This document shows positions 2,244 through 33,760 of a stretch of 33,760 nucleotides of DNA, piece after piece (positions within the stretch are counted from its first letter, which is position 1; every line of letters begins with the position of its first letter). The notes beneath the pieces are model-generated. The model did no database searches, was not told the DNA's origin, and was given only the letters and a program-made list of their open reading frames with translations. The translations under genes and the position numbers were made by a program. Location: contig JAAURS010000006.1 of NCBI GenBank assembly GCA_012032135.1, positions 1 through 33,760 on the forward strand, written 5' to 3'. This DNA comes from Acaryochloridaceae cyanobacterium RU_4_10. GTDB lineage: Bacteria; Cyanobacteriota; Cyanobacteriia; Thermosynechococcales; Thermosynechococcaceae.

Positions 2244-3186
2244 TTACTTAGGCGGAGGGGCGATCGCACCTTCTACTACATTTTTGAAATTCTGAGGTCC
2301 GGTGTAGGCTGAGGCTTTGCCAAGTTCGGTAAGAGACTGGGTTCCAGGTAACTCCTTCCCATTAATTTTCCAGGTTGGGTAGCTTTTGATTTTAGCTGCC
2401 GTACATAGATCGGGCTTTGCATTGGGGCCATTGGGGTCGCACTCAATGTAGGGCATTTTGCTAACGGCTTCTTTGCCAAACAATTGCTTTTGATCGTGAC
2501 AGTGAGGGCACCAGTAAGCCCCATACATCTTGGCATCCGTTGATGCTAAATGTTCTGCTAAAGCAATTTCGGGAGGGCCAGAGTTAGTGGTAACGGGCAA
2601 CATTTCTTTGGTGGTCGCTTGAGGGCCACCTGCAACGCTTGAATAAAACATCAAGGTACCAATGGAAACAATTACTGCAACCACAATTCCCACAAAAAAG
2701 ATCTGCCCGATATCCGGCCACGATCGACCAAAGAGGGTCAGCAGCAGCATTGATACGGCAAAGGCTGCGGAGGCGACACAGTAGATGCAAATGCCCGCGT
2801 TGATTTTGAAAAACAACAGCCACATCAAATAGCCGCTGAAAACGACCATTGCGATCGCTCCTGCCAGCAGCAGTAGCCAGGTCCAGTCCTCTAGCTTTTT
2901 GCGAAGGTCTTTTTTGTTGGGCGTCGCCTAAAGCCAGCGGCCCCAAGGAAAAAAGCGCCATGCTGGCGTAGGCTAAGGTACCAAATAGAGACAGGGGTAA
3001 GCCACCCAGTTTGGCGTATTTACTGCTGAGTACGGCATCGCAGCCACTGGTGGGACAAGCTACGGCCTGTCCTTGAAAATGGCTGATGGTAAGGTAGCCA
3101 GTAATGACAGCACCCAAAATAGCAATCCCGCCAATGAGGAAGCGGGACCAGCGATGAATCCAGGGGGTTGAACGACGACGAGACAT
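2244..3186 (-). pseudogene. VKOR-thioredoxin fusion (vitamin K epoxide reductase family), interrupted by an apparent frameshift at the 6-T run 2910-2915
   Basis: N-part MSRRRSTPWIHRWSRFLIGGIAILGAVITGYLTISHFQGQAVACPTSGCDAVLSSKYAKLGGLPLSLFGTLAYASMALFSLGPLALGDAQQK; the C-part DLRKKLEDWTWLLLLAGAIAMVVFSGYLMWLLFFKINAGICIYC...YGAYWCPHCHDQKQLFGKEA is in another frame. Confidence 0.88.
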
Positions 3187-3365
3187 AGTTCTGCGGCTGA
3201 ATCGCAATAACGACACTGAAACATTTACTCAATCATACTGGGTTGAACCCACCATCGGCGCTGGTGTCTCTCAATCCCTAGCAATTCCAAGCCTGACGGA
3301 GAGAATTCGATATCATACGGTTTGAAGTGAATGAATGGTCTAAAGTTCCATCGGGAGAATCTGCT

Positions 3366-3824
3366 ATGCCCACGCTCGATCAATGGTTTACTGGAGCCAA
3401 TGTTTTTGTTTTGCCCTTTTGGACGTTGATGATTTTATTGCCGAATTGGGACTGGACCCGTCGGGTGATGAGTTCGCTGTTGCCCTTTGTGGCATTGGCT
3501 TTACTGTATGTGGGTCTGTTTGCGACTGCCATTACGCCAGAATCAGCTCAGGCACTCTCCAATCCCACGCTGCCCGTGATTGCCCAATTTTTCTCTGACG
3601 AACGTGCAGCAGCAACAGGTTGGGTGCATTATTTGGTGATGGATCTGTTTGTGGGGCGTTGGATTTACTGGGAAGGTCAGCGCCTGGGGGTGTGGACGCG
3701 CCATTCTTTGGCACTTTGCTTTTTTGCAGGCCCCATGGGGTTGTTGTCCCATATTGCGACCGCTGCGATCGCCCAGAAGATGACCAAGGATTCCGCACCC
3801 CAACCTAGCGAAGCAGGAACATGA
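3366..3824 (+). CDS. ABA4-like (DUF4281) membrane protein
   Basis: MPTLDQWFTGANVFVLPFWTLMILLPNWDWTRRVMSS...GWVHYLVMDLFVGRWIYWEGQRLGV...FFAGPMGLLSHI matches the ABA4/DUF4281 pattern. Upstream ATG at 3327 is less likely. Confidence 0.85.
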   Translation: MPTLDQWFTGANVFVLPFWTLMILLPNWDWTRRVMSSLLPFVALALLYVGLFATAITPESAQALSNPTLPVIAQFFSDERAAATGWVHYLVMDLFVGRWIYWEGQRLGVWTRHSLALCFFAGPMGLLSHIATAAIAQKMTKDSAPQPSEAGT

Positions 3825-4111
3825 TTTTAGAAGTTGCGGTGCTGGATGTGAAGCCTGGAATGACGGCTAAGTTTGAGGTAGCTTTTAGTACGGCTTCAAA
3901 CATCATCGCTGGGATGCCGGGATATATTTCCCACGAACTTCAGCGTTGCATAGAAAACACAAATCGCTATATTTTGCTGGTGCGTTGGCAAACGTTGGAA
4001 GACCATACGATCGGGTTTCGGCAATCAGCGGAGTATGAGGAGTGGCGATCGTTGTTGCACCATTTTTACGACCCGTTCCCAACGGTCGAGCATTACGAAC
4101 TTGTGTTGTAG
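3821..4111 (+). CDS. Antibiotic biosynthesis monooxygenase (ABM) domain protein
   Basis: MILEVAVLDVKPGMTAKFEVAFSTASNIIAGMPGYISHELQRCIENTNRYILLVRWQTLEDHTIGFRQSAEYEEWRSLLHHFYDPFPTVEHYELVL; ATGA overlap with the upstream gene. Confidence 0.85.
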   Translation: MILEVAVLDVKPGMTAKFEVAFSTASNIIAGMPGYISHELQRCIENTNRYILLVRWQTLEDHTIGFRQSAEYEEWRSLLHHFYDPFPTVEHYELVL

Positions 4112-4164
4112 AACATCTGTATCTAGAAAGACCTCTTGGTTGAATGGGTCGATAGCGATCGCCT

Positions 4165-4500
4165 TTAAGCAACGCCATATCCCGTATATGGGCGTTTGTA
4201 AGCAGGATGCAACCCTAAAATGATATCTTCCTTCAAAACACCCATCTCAACCAATTCTGCGGCAATATCTACATCCGTCATATTTTGCTGAATCCAAACT
4301 TGCTCAGCCTTAATATCAAAATGCATCACACTATGATAAACCCGCTTCAGGCCATTCCAGCCCACCCGCATCAACTGATAGCGATCGCGTCCTTCATCAA
4401 AAATCAACTCACTTTCCACATCCTCGGGTTGAGACTGGTAATTACTGTGATTTGTAAGAATCCTCTTAACACATTGCCGATAATGGCTTAATTTATCCAT
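4165..4500 (-). CDS. xisI: XisI-like (fdxN element excision controlling factor) protein
   Basis: MDKLSHYRQCVKRILTNHSNYQ...VESELIFDEGRDRYQLMRVGWNGLKRVYHSVMHFDIKAEQVWIQQNMTDVDIAAELVEMGVLKEDIILGLHPAYKRPYTGYGVA; paired with a XisH-like gene. Confidence 0.92.
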   Translation of the reverse strand: MDKLSHYRQCVKRILTNHSNYQSQPEDVESELIFDEGRDRYQLMRVGWNGLKRVYHSVMHFDIKAEQVWIQQNMTDVDIAAELVEMGVLKEDIILGLHPAYKRPYTGYGVA

Positions 4501-4904
4501 CGCACAATTTCCTCCGATAGCTGGTCGTACACAATAAGCTTCAGTTGGTGTCGTTGCACCACAAGCTGAGCAAATCGAGTCTGGAAAAACGTTTCAAATG
4601 TTTCAAATGGTACCGCCAAATAGAGCAGACGTTCTGACCCATTTGCTTCTAGCATAATCCGATAGTTGAGGAACTGCCCCAGCGCCGTATGAAAATCGCT
4701 GACGGTTGAAGCACCCACAAAACTTTTAATCTCAACCGCAATTTTCTTCTCAGCCTTTTCTGCTGCAATCAACCGCTCGGCACCCATGTCAACCTTGAAG
4801 GTTATTTCTTCAAGTTCCAACTCTAGAGGGTCATGGGTAATCTTCCATGATTCTTTCTGAAGTGCACGTTTGACAGCATTATGAAATAAATCTTTGGCTG
4901 ACAT
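4488..4904 (-). CDS. xisH: XisH-like protein
   Basis: MSAKDLFHNAVKRALQKESWKITHDPL...GAERLIAAEKAEKKIAVEIKSFVGASTVSDFHTALGQFLNYR...; overlaps xisI by 13 nt. Confidence 0.92.
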   Translation of the reverse strand: MSAKDLFHNAVKRALQKESWKITHDPLELELEEITFKVDMGAERLIAAEKAEKKIAVEIKSFVGASTVSDFHTALGQFLNYRIMLEANGSERLLYLAVPFETFETFFQTRFAQLVVQRHQLKLIVYDQLSEEIVRWIN

Positions 4905-15449: not shown

Positions 15450-16967
15450 GTGTTGTTTCAAAGCGAAATTAGACCTTCTCAGGTTAATGACCTCCTTGAG
15501 AAAGTTCAAAACAAAAATTATGGACAATATTTGCTCAAAATATCTATTGAAAAAGCACGGACTTTTCAAGGAAAATCGATAAACTTTGATTTTCCTGTAA
15601 CGGCAATTGTAGGAATAAACGGTGGCGGCAAAACAACAGTATTAGGTGCAGCAGCATGTGCCTATAAAACAGTTAAGCCATCATTATTCTTTGCCAAAAG
15701 TGGTCGATTTGACTCCAGTATGCAGAACTGGAAATTTGAGTACGAGTTGATAGACAGGCGTATACGACCATCAGACACTATTCGACGAACTGCTAAATTC
15801 ACTCGTTCTAAATGGTCGCGTGATTGGCTAAAAGAATTAGATAGGACAGTGGTTGTCTTCGGTGTCTCTCGTACTGTACCAGCAAATGAACGTCCAGAAC
15901 TTCAGCGATGTGCATCCAACTCTTTTGATGTACTTCCAGAACACATTGATGAAATCAGTTCAGGCGTTGCTGAAGCGGTAGCTAGAATCCTTGATAAGGA
16001 TATATCCACATTCTCATTTCTGCGTGTGGATACTCGCGGTCGAGTTACGCTGCTTGCTGGACAAACTTCAGCGGGAGATTCATATTCGGAGTTTCATTTT
16101 GGTGCTGGAGAGTCTAGTATCATTCGCATGGCAATCAAATTGGAAACTATACCGGAGAATTCACTTGTTCTTATTGAAGAGATAGAAAATGGGCTTCATC
16201 CAGTTGCAACTGTTCGCATGGTTGAATACTTGATTGATTTAGCTCTACGAAGAAAAATCCAAGTCATTTTCACTACACATTCAAATGATGCACTCAAGCC
16301 ATTGCCCGACAAAGCAATATGGGCAGCCGCAAATGGCAGCTTATATCAGGGTAAGTTAGATGTTGGCTCTCTTCGTGCAATTAGTGGTCAAATAGACTCT
16401 CAGCTTGTTGTATTTGTTGAAGATAGTTTTGCCCGAACATGGGTAGAAGAAATTTTACGTTCTTTATCTGGAGTAGCTATGGATGCTGTCAGTGTCCATG
16501 CAATGGAAGGTGATGGAACAGCTGTAACAGTGCATCGAGGTCGTAAGCTTGATCCTAGTGTATCCCAACCTTCGGTTTGTTTAATCGATGGCGATTCTAA
16601 ACAACATGACTCTCTAACAGAAGCTATACATCGTCTTCCAGGGCAAAGCCCCGAATCTTACATCTACGATAAGGTTATTGAAAAACTTAATGAAGTATCA
16701 GGAGAACTAGCTGTTGCTTTATTGCGTCCCTACGAAGACGAGGCAAGAGTTGCAGAGATTGTTCGGAGTGTGCGTAATACAAACAGAGATCCTCATGTTC
16801 TCTATTCGCAGGTAGGTAAAAAACTTGGGCTTATTCCTGAAGCACGGGTGAGAGAGGCATTCATTACTCTCTGGGCACGTACATTTCCGAATGAAGTTCA
16901 ATTTATTACAAAACCTTTTATAGATAAAATTCCTCTAGAAAGCAGTCAGATAAGTATTGCCAGATAA
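15450..16967 (+). CDS. AAA ATPase with TOPRIM-like C-terminal region (OLD-family-like), GTG start
   Basis: Walker A GINGGGKTT, FGAGESSIIRMAI signature, Walker B SLVLIEEIENGLHP, VIFTTHSNDAL; TOPRIM-like VVFVEDSFARTWVEEIL and VCLIDGDSK. AGGAGT upstream. Confidence 0.88.
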   Translation: MLFQSEIRPSQVNDLLEKVQNKNYGQYLLKISIEKARTFQGKSINFDFPVTAIVGINGGGKTTVLGAAACAYKTVKPSLFFAKSGRFDSSMQNWKFEYELIDRRIRPSDTIRRTAKFTRSKWSRDWLKELDRTVVVFGVSRTVPANERPELQRCASNSFDVLPEHIDEISSGVAEAVARILDKDISTFSFLRVDTRGRVTLLAGQTSAGDSYSEFHFGAGESSIIRMAIKLETIPENSLVLIEEIENGLHPVATVRMVEYLIDLALRRKIQVIFTTHSNDALKPLPDKAIWAAANGSLYQGKLDVGSLRAISGQIDSQLVVFVEDSFARTWVEEILRSLSGVAMDAVSVHAMEGDGTAVTVHRGRKLDPSVSQPSVCLIDGDSKQHDSLTEAIHRLPGQSPESYIYDKVIEKLNEVSGELAVALLRPYEDEARVAEIVRSVRNTNRDPHVLYSQVGKKLGLIPEARVREAFITLWARTFPNEVQFITKPFIDKIPLESSQISIAR

Positions 16968-31136: not shown

Positions 31137-33254
31137 TTGAGTCTAAGAAACTTGAAACTTTCTGATGAATATCGCAGCGACAACTGTCAGCTCATACAAG
31201 ATTTCTATTTGCCTTGTTTAGAACGGGCAACTTTATATAGCCGTGCTGTGGGCTTTTTTTCGAGTACATCGATGGCCGCCGTGGCCAGTGGTTTGACAGT
31301 ATTTATCAAAACGGGCGGGCGAATGCGGTTGGTGGCTTCTCCCAATCTATCTAAAGAGGATGCTACGGCAATTATGGCGGGTTTGCGAAGTCGCGAAGAA
31401 GCGATCGCAACCGCCATCGTGCGAGAGCTAGACCAAACAATTAACGATATTATTCGCGATCGCCTTGCTTGCTTGGCGTGGTTGTTAAGTCAGGGAATTT
31501 TGGACATTAAGCTGGCGGTTCCCAAAGATATTAAGAACCGAGGAATCTATCACGAAAAATTAGGACTTTTTGCCGATAATGAAGGAAATATCGTCGCTTT
31601 TACAGGTTCGGCAAACGAAAGCTCAAACGCACTCGTTGATAACTTTGAATGTATTGATGTGTATACATCCTGGGAACCTGGAGTACAGCAGCGAGCGCAG
31701 CGAAAGGCAGAGCATTTTGAACGACTCTGGCAAAATGCTACTCCGAATGTTGAGGTGATTGAGTTTCCAGAAGCCGCACGGCGATCTCTACTGAAACTGC
31801 GGCCCGAGCAACCGCCAACCCATGAACCTAAAGCAGCGGCCCAGAGCGCTCAATATCGGGTTCAGCAAAAAGTCGATCTACATCTTCAAAAAACAGGAAT
31901 GCCCAGCATTCCGGCGCAAATTATATTGCGCCCCTATCAAGAGCAGGCGATCGCAAACTGGTTTGCCAACAAGGGGCGCGGTACCCTGAAAATGGCAACG
32001 GGGAGCGGAAAGACCATTACAGCCTTGGCGATCGCCACTGAACTCTATCGCACCCAGTCCCTGAAAGTACTCATCATCGTTTGCCCCTATCGGCATTTGG
32101 TGACGCAGTGGGATAGGGAATGTCGGCGATTCGGCTTAAATCCGATTTTGGCCTTTGAGGACATTAAGAAGTGGCAGGGAAAGCTCTCTAGCCAACTGTA
32201 TGCTCTACGTGCCGAACACCAACCCTTTTTAACGGTGATTACGACCAATGCGACGCTGATGGGCCAAGGTTTCCAGTCCCAGCTTGCTTATTTCCCTGAA
32301 AAGACGTTGATTATCGGCGATGAAGCCCATAATTTAGGCGCAATGCGGCTAGCCCAGAGTCTTCCGCAAGCGATTCCGTTTCGATTGGCACTTTCTGCAA
32401 CGCCAGAACGCTATTTCGATGAGTCGGGCACCCAGGTTATTTACGATTATTTTGGAGCGGTGCTGGAACCGGAATTTACCTTAAGCGATGCGATCGCCCA
32501 GGGTGCTCTCGTTCACTACCTATATCACCCAATTTTGGTGGAACTCACGGAATCGGAGTCGCAGCGCTATATTGCATTATCAACTAAAATTCGGCGTTTG
32601 ATTGGGATGGGCGAACCAGATGATGAGAATCCCGCTTTAACACCATTGCTAATGGAGCGATCGCGACTGGTTGGTTCGGCAGCCAATAAGCTAGAGGCGC
32701 TGCGGGAGTTAATGGGCGATCGCCTAGAGACAACCCATACGTTGTTTTATTGCGGGGACGGAAACGTCGAGGATAACGTCTCAGAAACCAGCGAGCGGCA
32801 AGTGGCAGCGGTAGCGAGGCTGCTGGGACGAGAGTTAGGCTATCGCATCAATACCTACACTGCCGATACGCCGCTAGAGGAACGTGCCGATTTGCATACG
32901 TTATTTGAATCGGGCGAGTTGCAGGGCTTAGTGGCGATTCGGTGCTTGGATGAAGGAATTGATATTCCGGCAACCCAAACGGCGGTGATTTTAGCGAGTA
33001 GCAATAATCCGCGTCAGTTTGTGCAACGGCGAGGCCGTATTCTGAGACCTCACCCGCACAAACAGCGCGCTACGCTATTTGACATGATTGTCGTGCCGCC
33101 AGCGTTGGATCGCGCTACGTTTGAAATGGAGCGTCAATTGCTCAGAACGGAGCTAATTCGGTTTGTTGAGTTTGCCGATCTTGCAGACAATGCAGGAGAG
33201 GCACGCTTAAAGTTGCTGGCGCTTCAGCAGCAGTACGATTTATTAGATGTATAA
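31137..33254 (+). CDS. PLD-like nuclease + SF2 DEAD/DEAH helicase (resembles the Dnd phosphorothioation-associated restriction enzyme family); TTG start inferred
   Basis: HKD motif YHEKLGLFADNEGNIVAFTGSANES; helicase motifs ILRPYQEQAI, KMATGSGKTITALA, IIGDEAHNL, LALSATPERY, IRCLDEGIDIPATQTAVILASSNNPRQFVQRRGRILR. Confidence 0.92.
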   Translation: MSLRNLKLSDEYRSDNCQLIQDFYLPCLERATLYSRAVGFFSSTSMAAVASGLTVFIKTGGRMRLVASPNLSKEDATAIMAGLRSREEAIATAIVRELDQTINDIIRDRLACLAWLLSQGILDIKLAVPKDIKNRGIYHEKLGLFADNEGNIVAFTGSANESSNALVDNFECIDVYTSWEPGVQQRAQRKAEHFERLWQNATPNVEVIEFPEAARRSLLKLRPEQPPTHEPKAAAQSAQYRVQQKVDLHLQKTGMPSIPAQIILRPYQEQAIANWFANKGRGTLKMATGSGKTITALAIATELYRTQSLKVLIIVCPYRHLVTQWDRECRRFGLNPILAFEDIKKWQGKLSSQLYALRAEHQPFLTVITTNATLMGQGFQSQLAYFPEKTLIIGDEAHNLGAMRLAQSLPQAIPFRLALSATPERYFDESGTQVIYDYFGAVLEPEFTLSDAIAQGALVHYLYHPILVELTESESQRYIALSTKIRRLIGMGEPDDENPALTPLLMERSRLVGSAANKLEALRELMGDRLETTHTLFYCGDGNVEDNVSETSERQVAAVARLLGRELGYRINTYTADTPLEERADLHTLFESGELQGLVAIRCLDEGIDIPATQTAVILASSNNPRQFVQRRGRILRPHPHKQRATLFDMIVVPPALDRATFEMERQLLRTELIRFVEFADLADNAGEARLKLLALQQQYDLLDV

Positions 33255-33269
33255 GGTATCGAAACTTTA

Positions 33270-33443
33270 ATGGCCCAAGACAATAAACTCATCCAAGTCC
33301 AAGATCCCATTCATAGCGCTTCGCCAGCGGTGCGGCAGATTATCGAGCGAGTGCTGGAGCTAGAAAAAGATCGGCTCGACCGCAACGATCGCGGTGTAAT
33401 TCATACGGATATTCTCAATATTGTGAAGGAAGCGGTGCAATGA
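33270..33443 (+). CDS. Small hypothetical protein (57 aa) between helicase and ATPase genes
   Basis: MAQDNKLIQVQDPIHSASPAVRQIIERVLELEKDRLDRNDRGVIHTDILNIVKEAVQ*; ATGA overlap with the next ORF. Confidence 0.8.
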   Translation: MAQDNKLIQVQDPIHSASPAVRQIIERVLELEKDRLDRNDRGVIHTDILNIVKEAVQ

Positions 33444-33760
33444 AGCTGCTGAGCCTGAAACTCCTCAACTTTCGTCCGTTTTTTGGGGAACATCGGTTGA
33501 TGTTTGCCAAAAGTCACGATCGCAATATCACGGTCATCCACGGCAACAATGGCGCGGGCAAAACAGCCCTGCTGAATGCGTTTACCTGGGCGCTCTACGA
33601 AAAATTTACGGCGGCGTTGTCTTCACCAGAATACTTGGTGAACCGTAGGGCGATCGCCGAAGCCAAGGTGGGCAAAACGGTGGAATGTTGGGTAGAGGTT
33701 GGGTTTGAGCATGATGGCAAGCAGTACCGTCTTAAACGAAGCATTGAAGTTCGCAAGACG
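33440..33760 (+). CDS. SMC/DndD-like AAA ATPase, N-terminus only (cut by right edge)
   Basis: MKLLSLKLLNFRPFFGEHRLMFAKSHDRNITVIHGNNGAGKTALLNAFTWALYEKFTAALSSPEYLVNRRAIAEAKVGKTVECWVEVGFEHDGKQYRLKRSIEVRKT; Walker A GNNGAGKT. Confidence 0.88.
   Translation, partial: MKLLSLKLLNFRPFFGEHRLMFAKSHDRNITVIHGNNGAGKTALLNAFTWALYEKFTAALSSPEYLVNRRAIAEAKVGKTVECWVEVGFEHDGKQYRLKRSIEVRKT

What the first reader, a model, noticed from the sequence alone, without database searches (positions are those of the whole stretch)
31137..33760. Helicase-PLD / 57-aa ORF / DndD-like ATPase operon at the right edge: probable Dnd-like defence module
Seen: a 705-aa protein joining an HKD nuclease motif to a full SF2 helicase, then a 57-aa charged ORF, then an ATGA-coupled SMC-like ATPase that begins like DndD/RecF-type proteins. 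Established: PLD-SF2 helicase proteins are annotated as Dnd phosphorothioation-associated restriction enzymes, and DndD is an SMC-like ATPase. Inference: this is the start of a defence operon. The 57-aa ORF would be easy to miss in annotation and may be a structural or regulatory subunit.
Basis: partly seen in the sequence, partly recalled or inferred. Interest (0 to 1): 0.72.

Follow-up and report, generated by a model that had tools for sequence, protein, structure and literature searches.

The report
PbeABCD anti-virus operon, cyanobacterial
The right edge of this window is the start of a known type of bacterial anti-virus system (PbeABCD, the partner of sulphur-marked DNA). The overlooked 57-amino-acid gene is its conserved PbeB subunit, and the rest of the operon sits on another contig, next to two sulphur-DNA-binding nuclease genes and a broken remnant of the sulphur-marking gene.

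Summary
31137-33254 is PbeA (PADLOC 828 bits, full length; TIGR04095 638 > 600 cutoff). 33270-33443 is PbeB: found directly upstream of PbeC in 44 of 49 distinct loci, 43 with the same 4-nt overlap. 33440-33760 is the first 107 codons of PbeC, not DndD or RecF. The window ends at a contig end. The remainder of PbeC is on contig C432 of the same genome, followed by Uma2, a DUF4351-like ORF, PbeD (TIGR04062; modelled fold closest to DndE), an SBD-only protein, an SBD-HNH nuclease and a ~43-codon dndC relic. No dndC, dndD or dndB was found in the 77%-complete genome. PbeC, PbeD and dndC on C432 show breaks (assembly error or decay). In 386 cyanobacterial-phylum genomes, Pbe genes and dndC co-occur almost one to one (89 shared of 98 and 93). 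SBD-HNH lies within 4.4 kb of dndC in 33 of 35 dndC+ genomes, although this nuclease family is expected to cut phosphorothioated DNA. The core is a new member of a known kind; the SBD/SBD-HNH pair is the part worth testing.

The parts
31137..33254 (+). PbeA: PLD/HKD nuclease-like N-terminus fused to SF2 helicase (705 aa)
   Evidence: PADLOC PDLC02704 PbeA 828 bits over 3-689; TIGR04095 638 bits > cutoff 600; helicase nearest solved relatives XPB/RAD25
31551..31577 (+). HKD-type motif HEKLGLFAD (residues 139-147) of PbeA
   Evidence: translation
32001..32015 (+). Walker A GSGKT of the PbeA helicase (DEAH at 32319-32330, RRGR motif at 33027-33038)
   Evidence: translation
33270..33443 (+). PbeB: 57-aa small subunit
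   Evidence: Upstream of PbeC in 44/49 loci, 43 with 4-nt overlap; 9 invariant residues in 17 relatives; model of three helices, pLDDT 69; no HMM library recognises it
33440..33760 (+). PbeC, first 107 codons (contig ends here); Walker A GNNGAGKT at 33542-33565
   Evidence: PADLOC PDLC02753 PbeC 173 bits over 1-107; remainder on contig C432 (L008:94-1713), 711 bits over 151-648 of 648

Best explanation
This is a PbeABCD locus, the CxC ABC-ATPase-anchored exclusion system that works with DNA phosphorothioation (PT). Most likely mechanism: PbeC (ABC ATPase with coiled coil and CxC hook) and PbeD (DndE-like DNA binder) scan duplex DNA. PbeA (SF2 motor with a PLD/HKD nuclease-like domain) is recruited and blocks replication of, or nicks, DNA lacking PT at the expected sites. 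PbeB is a small helical adaptor or brake co-translated with PbeC. Shown here: gene content, order, families, DndE-like fold of PbeD, conservation of PbeB, and co-occurrence with dndC in cyanobacteria. Inferred from relatives: anti-virus activity, PT-gating, the roles of PbeB and of the HKD domain. In this genome dndC survives, as far as seen, only as a ~43-codon relic beside the operon, so the local copy may be uncoupled from PT or decaying. (Confidence is for the identity as PbeABCD; I put the detailed mechanism at about 0.5.)
For: Full-length PbeA and both PbeC halves match PADLOC models. PbeD passes TIGR04062 (144 > 74 bits), and its model's top 12 PDB matches are all DndE (E 0.05-1.1, prob up to 0.99). 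CxC motif RCICG in PbeC. PbeB conserved with translational coupling. Same order PbeA-B-C-(Uma2)-PbeD-SBDHNH-dndC-dndD in relatives. In 386 genomes the helicase (98) and dndC (93) co-occur in 89, Fisher p 2.6e-71, not corrected for ancestry. Experiments on the archaeal H. jeotgali A29 system: all four pbe genes contribute, ~10^4-fold protection, PT required (PMC6459918).
Against: The joining of C284 to C432 is inferred from complementary PbeC halves and synteny; about 25-43 codons are unseen. PbeC is out of frame in the first ~93 bases of C432 and PbeD lacks its conserved C-terminal tail. No dndC/D/B in the genome (77% complete). PbeB and the PLD domain are recognised by context, not by a passing Pfam model. 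No activity was tested.
Confidence: 0.85

Rival explanations
1. A decayed locus: dndC deleted, PbeC and PbeD frame-broken, so the operon is a pseudogene cluster with no present function.
For: dndC relic of ~43 codons, 67% identical to the C-terminal part of relatives' DndC and cut at both ends; PbeC frame break at the start of C432 and a PbeD tail readable only in another frame; no dndC/D/B in the genome.
Against: PbeA, PbeB and PbeC codons 1-107 are intact in the window; SBD, SBD-HNH and Uma2 ORFs are intact on C432; the PbeC break and the dndC relic lie at contig ends of a fragmented assembly, where errors are common.
Confidence: 0.35
2. The downstream SBD and SBD-HNH proteins, not PbeA alone, are the working nuclease: the SBD-only partner reads PT and the SBD-HNH cuts, as a PT-sensing effector inside the same operon.
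For: SBD-HNH lies within 4.4 kb of dndC in 33 of 35 dndC+ SBD-HNH genomes; the paired SBD-only protein keeps the sulphur-contacting HK in 17 of 17 loci, while SBD-HNH varies (YQ here); R117Q weakened PT binding in ScoMcrA (PMC6224610); SBD matches solved SBDHga1, E 2.5e-31.
Against: Only 39 of 386 genomes have it against 97 with PbeC, so it is optional; the nearest homologues of the pair here are stand-alone (L128-L130); the SBD region is AT-rich (GC 0.36) against 0.50 for PbeA-B-C, suggesting a later arrival.
Confidence: 0.25
3. The ATPase is a housekeeping RecF/SbcC-like repair protein unrelated to the helicase.
For: The N-terminal 107 aa also match SbcC and Rad50 models (TIGR00618 67 bits, far below its 478 cutoff).
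Against: PbeC models give 173 and 711 bits on the two halves; linkage PbeB-PbeC in 44 of 49 loci; TIGR04095 helicase and PbeC co-occur in 95 genomes, only 3 and 2 with one alone.
Confidence: 0.01

Closest known systems
PbeABCD of the archaeon H. jeotgali A29 (PMC6459918)
   Same: Gene order pbeA-B-C-D; PbeA with PLD, ResIII and Helicase_C; small PbeB (66 aa there, 57 here); AAA ATPase PbeC; PbeD about 140-150 aa
   Different: No intact dndCDEA seen beside it; Uma2 and a DUF4351-like ORF between PbeC and PbeD; SBD and SBD-HNH after PbeD; cyanobacterial
CxC ABC-ATPase-DndE system (PMC10853773)
   Same: HKD-SF2 helicase, small protein, CxC ATPase, DndE cognate; nucleases in the same neighbourhoods
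   Different: The HNH neighbour described there is wHTH+SAD+HNH; here it is SBD-HNH with no SAD found, plus a separate SBD-only partner
Cyanobacterial dnd+pbe loci (e.g. L102, L041/L093, L098)
   Same: PbeA-B-C-(Uma2)-PbeD-(SBDHNH)-dndC-dndD
   Different: Most relatives' helicase lacks the PLD domain (36 of 50 loci); here PLD is fused; dndC is a relic here
SBD-HNH PT-dependent endonucleases, EcoWI/SprMcrA type (PMC7461809)
   Same: SBD followed by HNH; NF045808 111 bits
   Different: Below NF045808's 180-bit cutoff; HK replaced by YQ in the SBD of the HNH protein; linked to dnd/pbe genes, where <3.6% was reported

Membership tests
PbeABCD / CxC ABC-ATPase system | PbeA: HKD/PLD fused to SF2 helicase | tested here: met
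   (828 bits over the full model), motifs
PbeABCD / CxC ABC-ATPase system | Small PbeB between pbeA and pbeC | tested here: met
   position and conservation in 44/49 loci
[quoted passage not shown]
   PbeC models; CICG motif within the coiled-coil insert; the two halves are on two contigs
PbeABCD / CxC ABC-ATPase system | PbeD, a DndE cognate | tested here: met
   TIGR04062 144 > 74 bits; model matches DndE first; the C-terminal tail seen in relatives is missing
PbeABCD / CxC ABC-ATPase system | PT modification genes present in the cell | tested here: inconclusive
   No dndC/D/B found; genome 77% complete; dndC relic beside the operon. Published PbeAC are also often without dndCD within 10 kb (PMC6459918)
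PbeABCD / CxC ABC-ATPase system | PT-gated protection from viruses | not testable with these tools
   Needs phage challenge
DndD | TIGR03185 above cutoff 245.85 | tested here: not met
   45 and 106 bits on the two halves
RecF/SbcC | TIGR00611 / TIGR00618 above cutoff | tested here: not met
   23.6 of 172 and 67 of 478.5 bits, on the N-terminal fragment; neither hits the remainder
PT-dependent SBD-HNH endonuclease (contig C432) | SBD with H and K/R at the sulphur cavity plus HNH | tested here: inconclusive
   HNH_2 passes; NF045808 below cutoff; SBD of the HNH protein has YQ, its SBD-only partner has HK

The most novel reading that the evidence does not exclude
In cyanobacteria the PT operons carry their own PT-reading nuclease, in some loci split into an SBD-only sensor (HK kept) and an SBD-HNH cutter (HK lost). 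It acts with PbeABCD as a regulated effector that is triggered by, or held off by, the host's own PT marks, rather than as a barrier against foreign PT DNA.
Probability: 0.25. Interest if true: 0.62.

Novelty: new member of a known kind. Interest (0 to 1): 0.37.

Why it matters
It puts a name and a partner list on an operon cut by the end of a contig, and shows that the tiny ORF is a conserved subunit that profile libraries miss. The wider survey bears on two published statements. One paper says PT restriction components are absent from Cyanobacteria, having looked for dndFGH (PMC8569181); Pbe genes accompany dndC in almost every sampled genome. Another finds SBD-HNH nucleases rarely near dnd genes (<3.6%, PMC7461809); in cyanobacteria they sit beside dndC in 33 of 35 dndC+ genomes that have them. 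How a cell can encode a PT-cutting enzyme family inside its PT-making operon is directly testable.

Tried and rejected
First scan of genome contigs with the single PbeA sequence found no relatives: too few conserved patterns. PADLOC, NCBIfam and Pfam have no model that hits the 57-aa ORF. The first 150 bases of C432 occur nowhere else in the assembly, so no repeat is visible as the cause of the contig break. Intein considered for the PbeC break and rejected by inspection (no C-terminal HN; translations). PbeD profile finds no PDB chain by sequence, only by fold. PbeD tblastn in phage records: none. The ~200-aa gene upstream of the PLD-less helicase was thought to be a split-off PLD domain; in three loci it is LexA and in one Uma2.

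Full report
What is in the window. Three ORFs run rightwards at the right edge: 31137-33254 (705 aa), 33270-33443 (57 aa) and 33440 to the end (107 codons, open). The first matches PADLOC PbeA over its whole length (828 bits) and TIGR04095 above its cutoff (638 of 600). It has an HKD-type motif HEK...D at 139-147 and helicase motifs GSGKT, DEAH and RRGR. The helicase half is nearest to XPB/RAD25 among solved structures. The third is PbeC by the best PADLOC model (173 bits over positions 1-107); DndD, SbcC and RecF models score far below their cutoffs.

Beyond the window. C284 is 33,760 bases, so the window is the whole contig. The same genome has exactly one other strong PbeC piece, at the start of contig C432 (5,058 bases), covering model positions 151-648. 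The halves are complementary, GC agrees (0.50 and 0.52), and relatives have this gene order, so I read them as one gene. This is inference: 25-43 codons are unseen. C432 continues with Uma2 (1713-2360), an 89-aa DUF4351-like ORF (2373-2642), PbeD (2834-3250; TIGR04062), an SBD-only protein (3290-3841) and an SBD-HNH protein (3826-4785; HNH_2 44 bits, NF045808 111 of 180 bits).

Membership. The 2019 paper defines PbeABCD in H. jeotgali A29: PLD-ResIII-helicase, a 66-aa protein, an AAA protein and a 152-aa protein, all contributing to protection. The 2024 reappraisal renames the parts: HKD-SF2, small protein, CxC ABC ATPase, DndE cognate. All four are met here: CxC as RCICG in the coiled-coil insert, and the PbeD model (pLDDT 83) has DndE structures as its first twelve PDB matches (E-values modest, 0.05 to 1.1).

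The 57-aa ORF. In 49 distinct loci with a PbeC start, 44 have a PbeB relative just upstream and 43 of these overlap PbeC by exactly 4 nt. Nine columns are invariant in 17 relatives. The model is three helices at moderate confidence (pLDDT 69), so 'mostly disordered' is not clearly supported for this branch. RefSeq lists a 57-aa hypothetical protein in the same position on plasmid pPg_01 of Pseudanabaena galeata.

Co-occurrence. In 386 genomes of the phylum the TIGR04095 helicase is in 98, PbeC in 97, DndC above cutoff in 93; helicase with DndC 89, PbeC with DndC 88, helicase with PbeC 95. P-values ignore shared ancestry. Most of these helicases lack the PLD domain: 36 of 50 loci with enough upstream sequence have none, so the fused form in this window is the minority form in cyanobacteria. 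RefSeq can also hide it: on pPg_01 the PLD part is present and in frame but the annotated start lies after it.

The nuclease pair. SBD-HNH (alignment A2) is in 39 of 386 genomes, 35 of them with DndC, and in 33 of these within 4.4 kb of dndC. The seed alignment came mostly from dnd-linked copies, which biases the count upward; a scan of genome contigs found both linked and stand-alone copies among the best 80. The SBD matches the solved SBDHga1. In ScoMcrA the sulphur cavity uses H116, R117 (K in most homologues), Y164 and P165, and R117Q weakens binding. The SBD-only partner keeps HK in 17 of 17; SBD-HNH proteins vary, and six of the paired ones, including this one, have YQ. This suggests, but does not show, a division of labour. 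SBD/wHTH-containing HNH proteins in Dnd loci as such were already noted in 2024 (wHTH+SAD+HNH, 698 taxa; PMC10853773), so the linkage is an extension, not a first sighting.

Signs of decay. Right after SBD-HNH, where relatives have dndC, about 43 codons match DndC residues about 400-440 (up to 67% identity, E down to 4e-18), preceded and followed by unrelated sequence. No DndC, DndD or DndB is found in the genome, which is 76.9% complete. The first ~93 bases of C432 do not read as PbeC in one frame. PbeD stops before the EEFDLSKFL tail of relatives, and a similar string lies just downstream in another frame. Contig-end errors and real decay cannot be told apart here.

Verdict. A real defence operon, ordinary in kind but informative; core identity secure, local function uncertain, with an SBD/SBD-HNH module as the open question.

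Noticed in passing
L008:4807-4962: ~43-codon relic of dndC directly after SBD-HNH, cut at both ends
   Followed up: yes
L098:2030-2701, L101:18444-19049, L105:18751-19377: LexA repressor gene directly upstream of the PLD-less PbeA helicase in three loci; possible SOS link, not tested
   Followed up: partly
L208:13941-14652 (NZ_CP112875.1): RefSeq start of 'DNA phosphorothioation system restriction enzyme' is internal: the PLD domain is encoded in frame upstream but left out of the annotation
   Followed up: yes
L128-L132, L140 and others: Two-gene SBD-only + SBD-HNH module occurs with and without dnd/pbe genes, so it may move as a unit
   Followed up: partly
G170:C2:741394-742389, G060:C23:582341-583261, G011:C1:68817-69791: Divergent DndC-like PAPS-reductase proteins (~130-137 bits, below the DndC cutoff), two of them beside Pbe loci or Pbe remains; substrate unknown
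   Followed up: no
L097, L098, L099, L103-L106: A ~530-aa DGQHR/DndB-like gene sits between PbeD and dndC, usually on the opposite strand, distinct from the ~394-aa DndB
   Followed up: partly
window 15450-16964: ATPase matching AAA_15/AAA_21 (OLD-like), possibly a second defence-type gene, away from the Pbe operon
   Followed up: no
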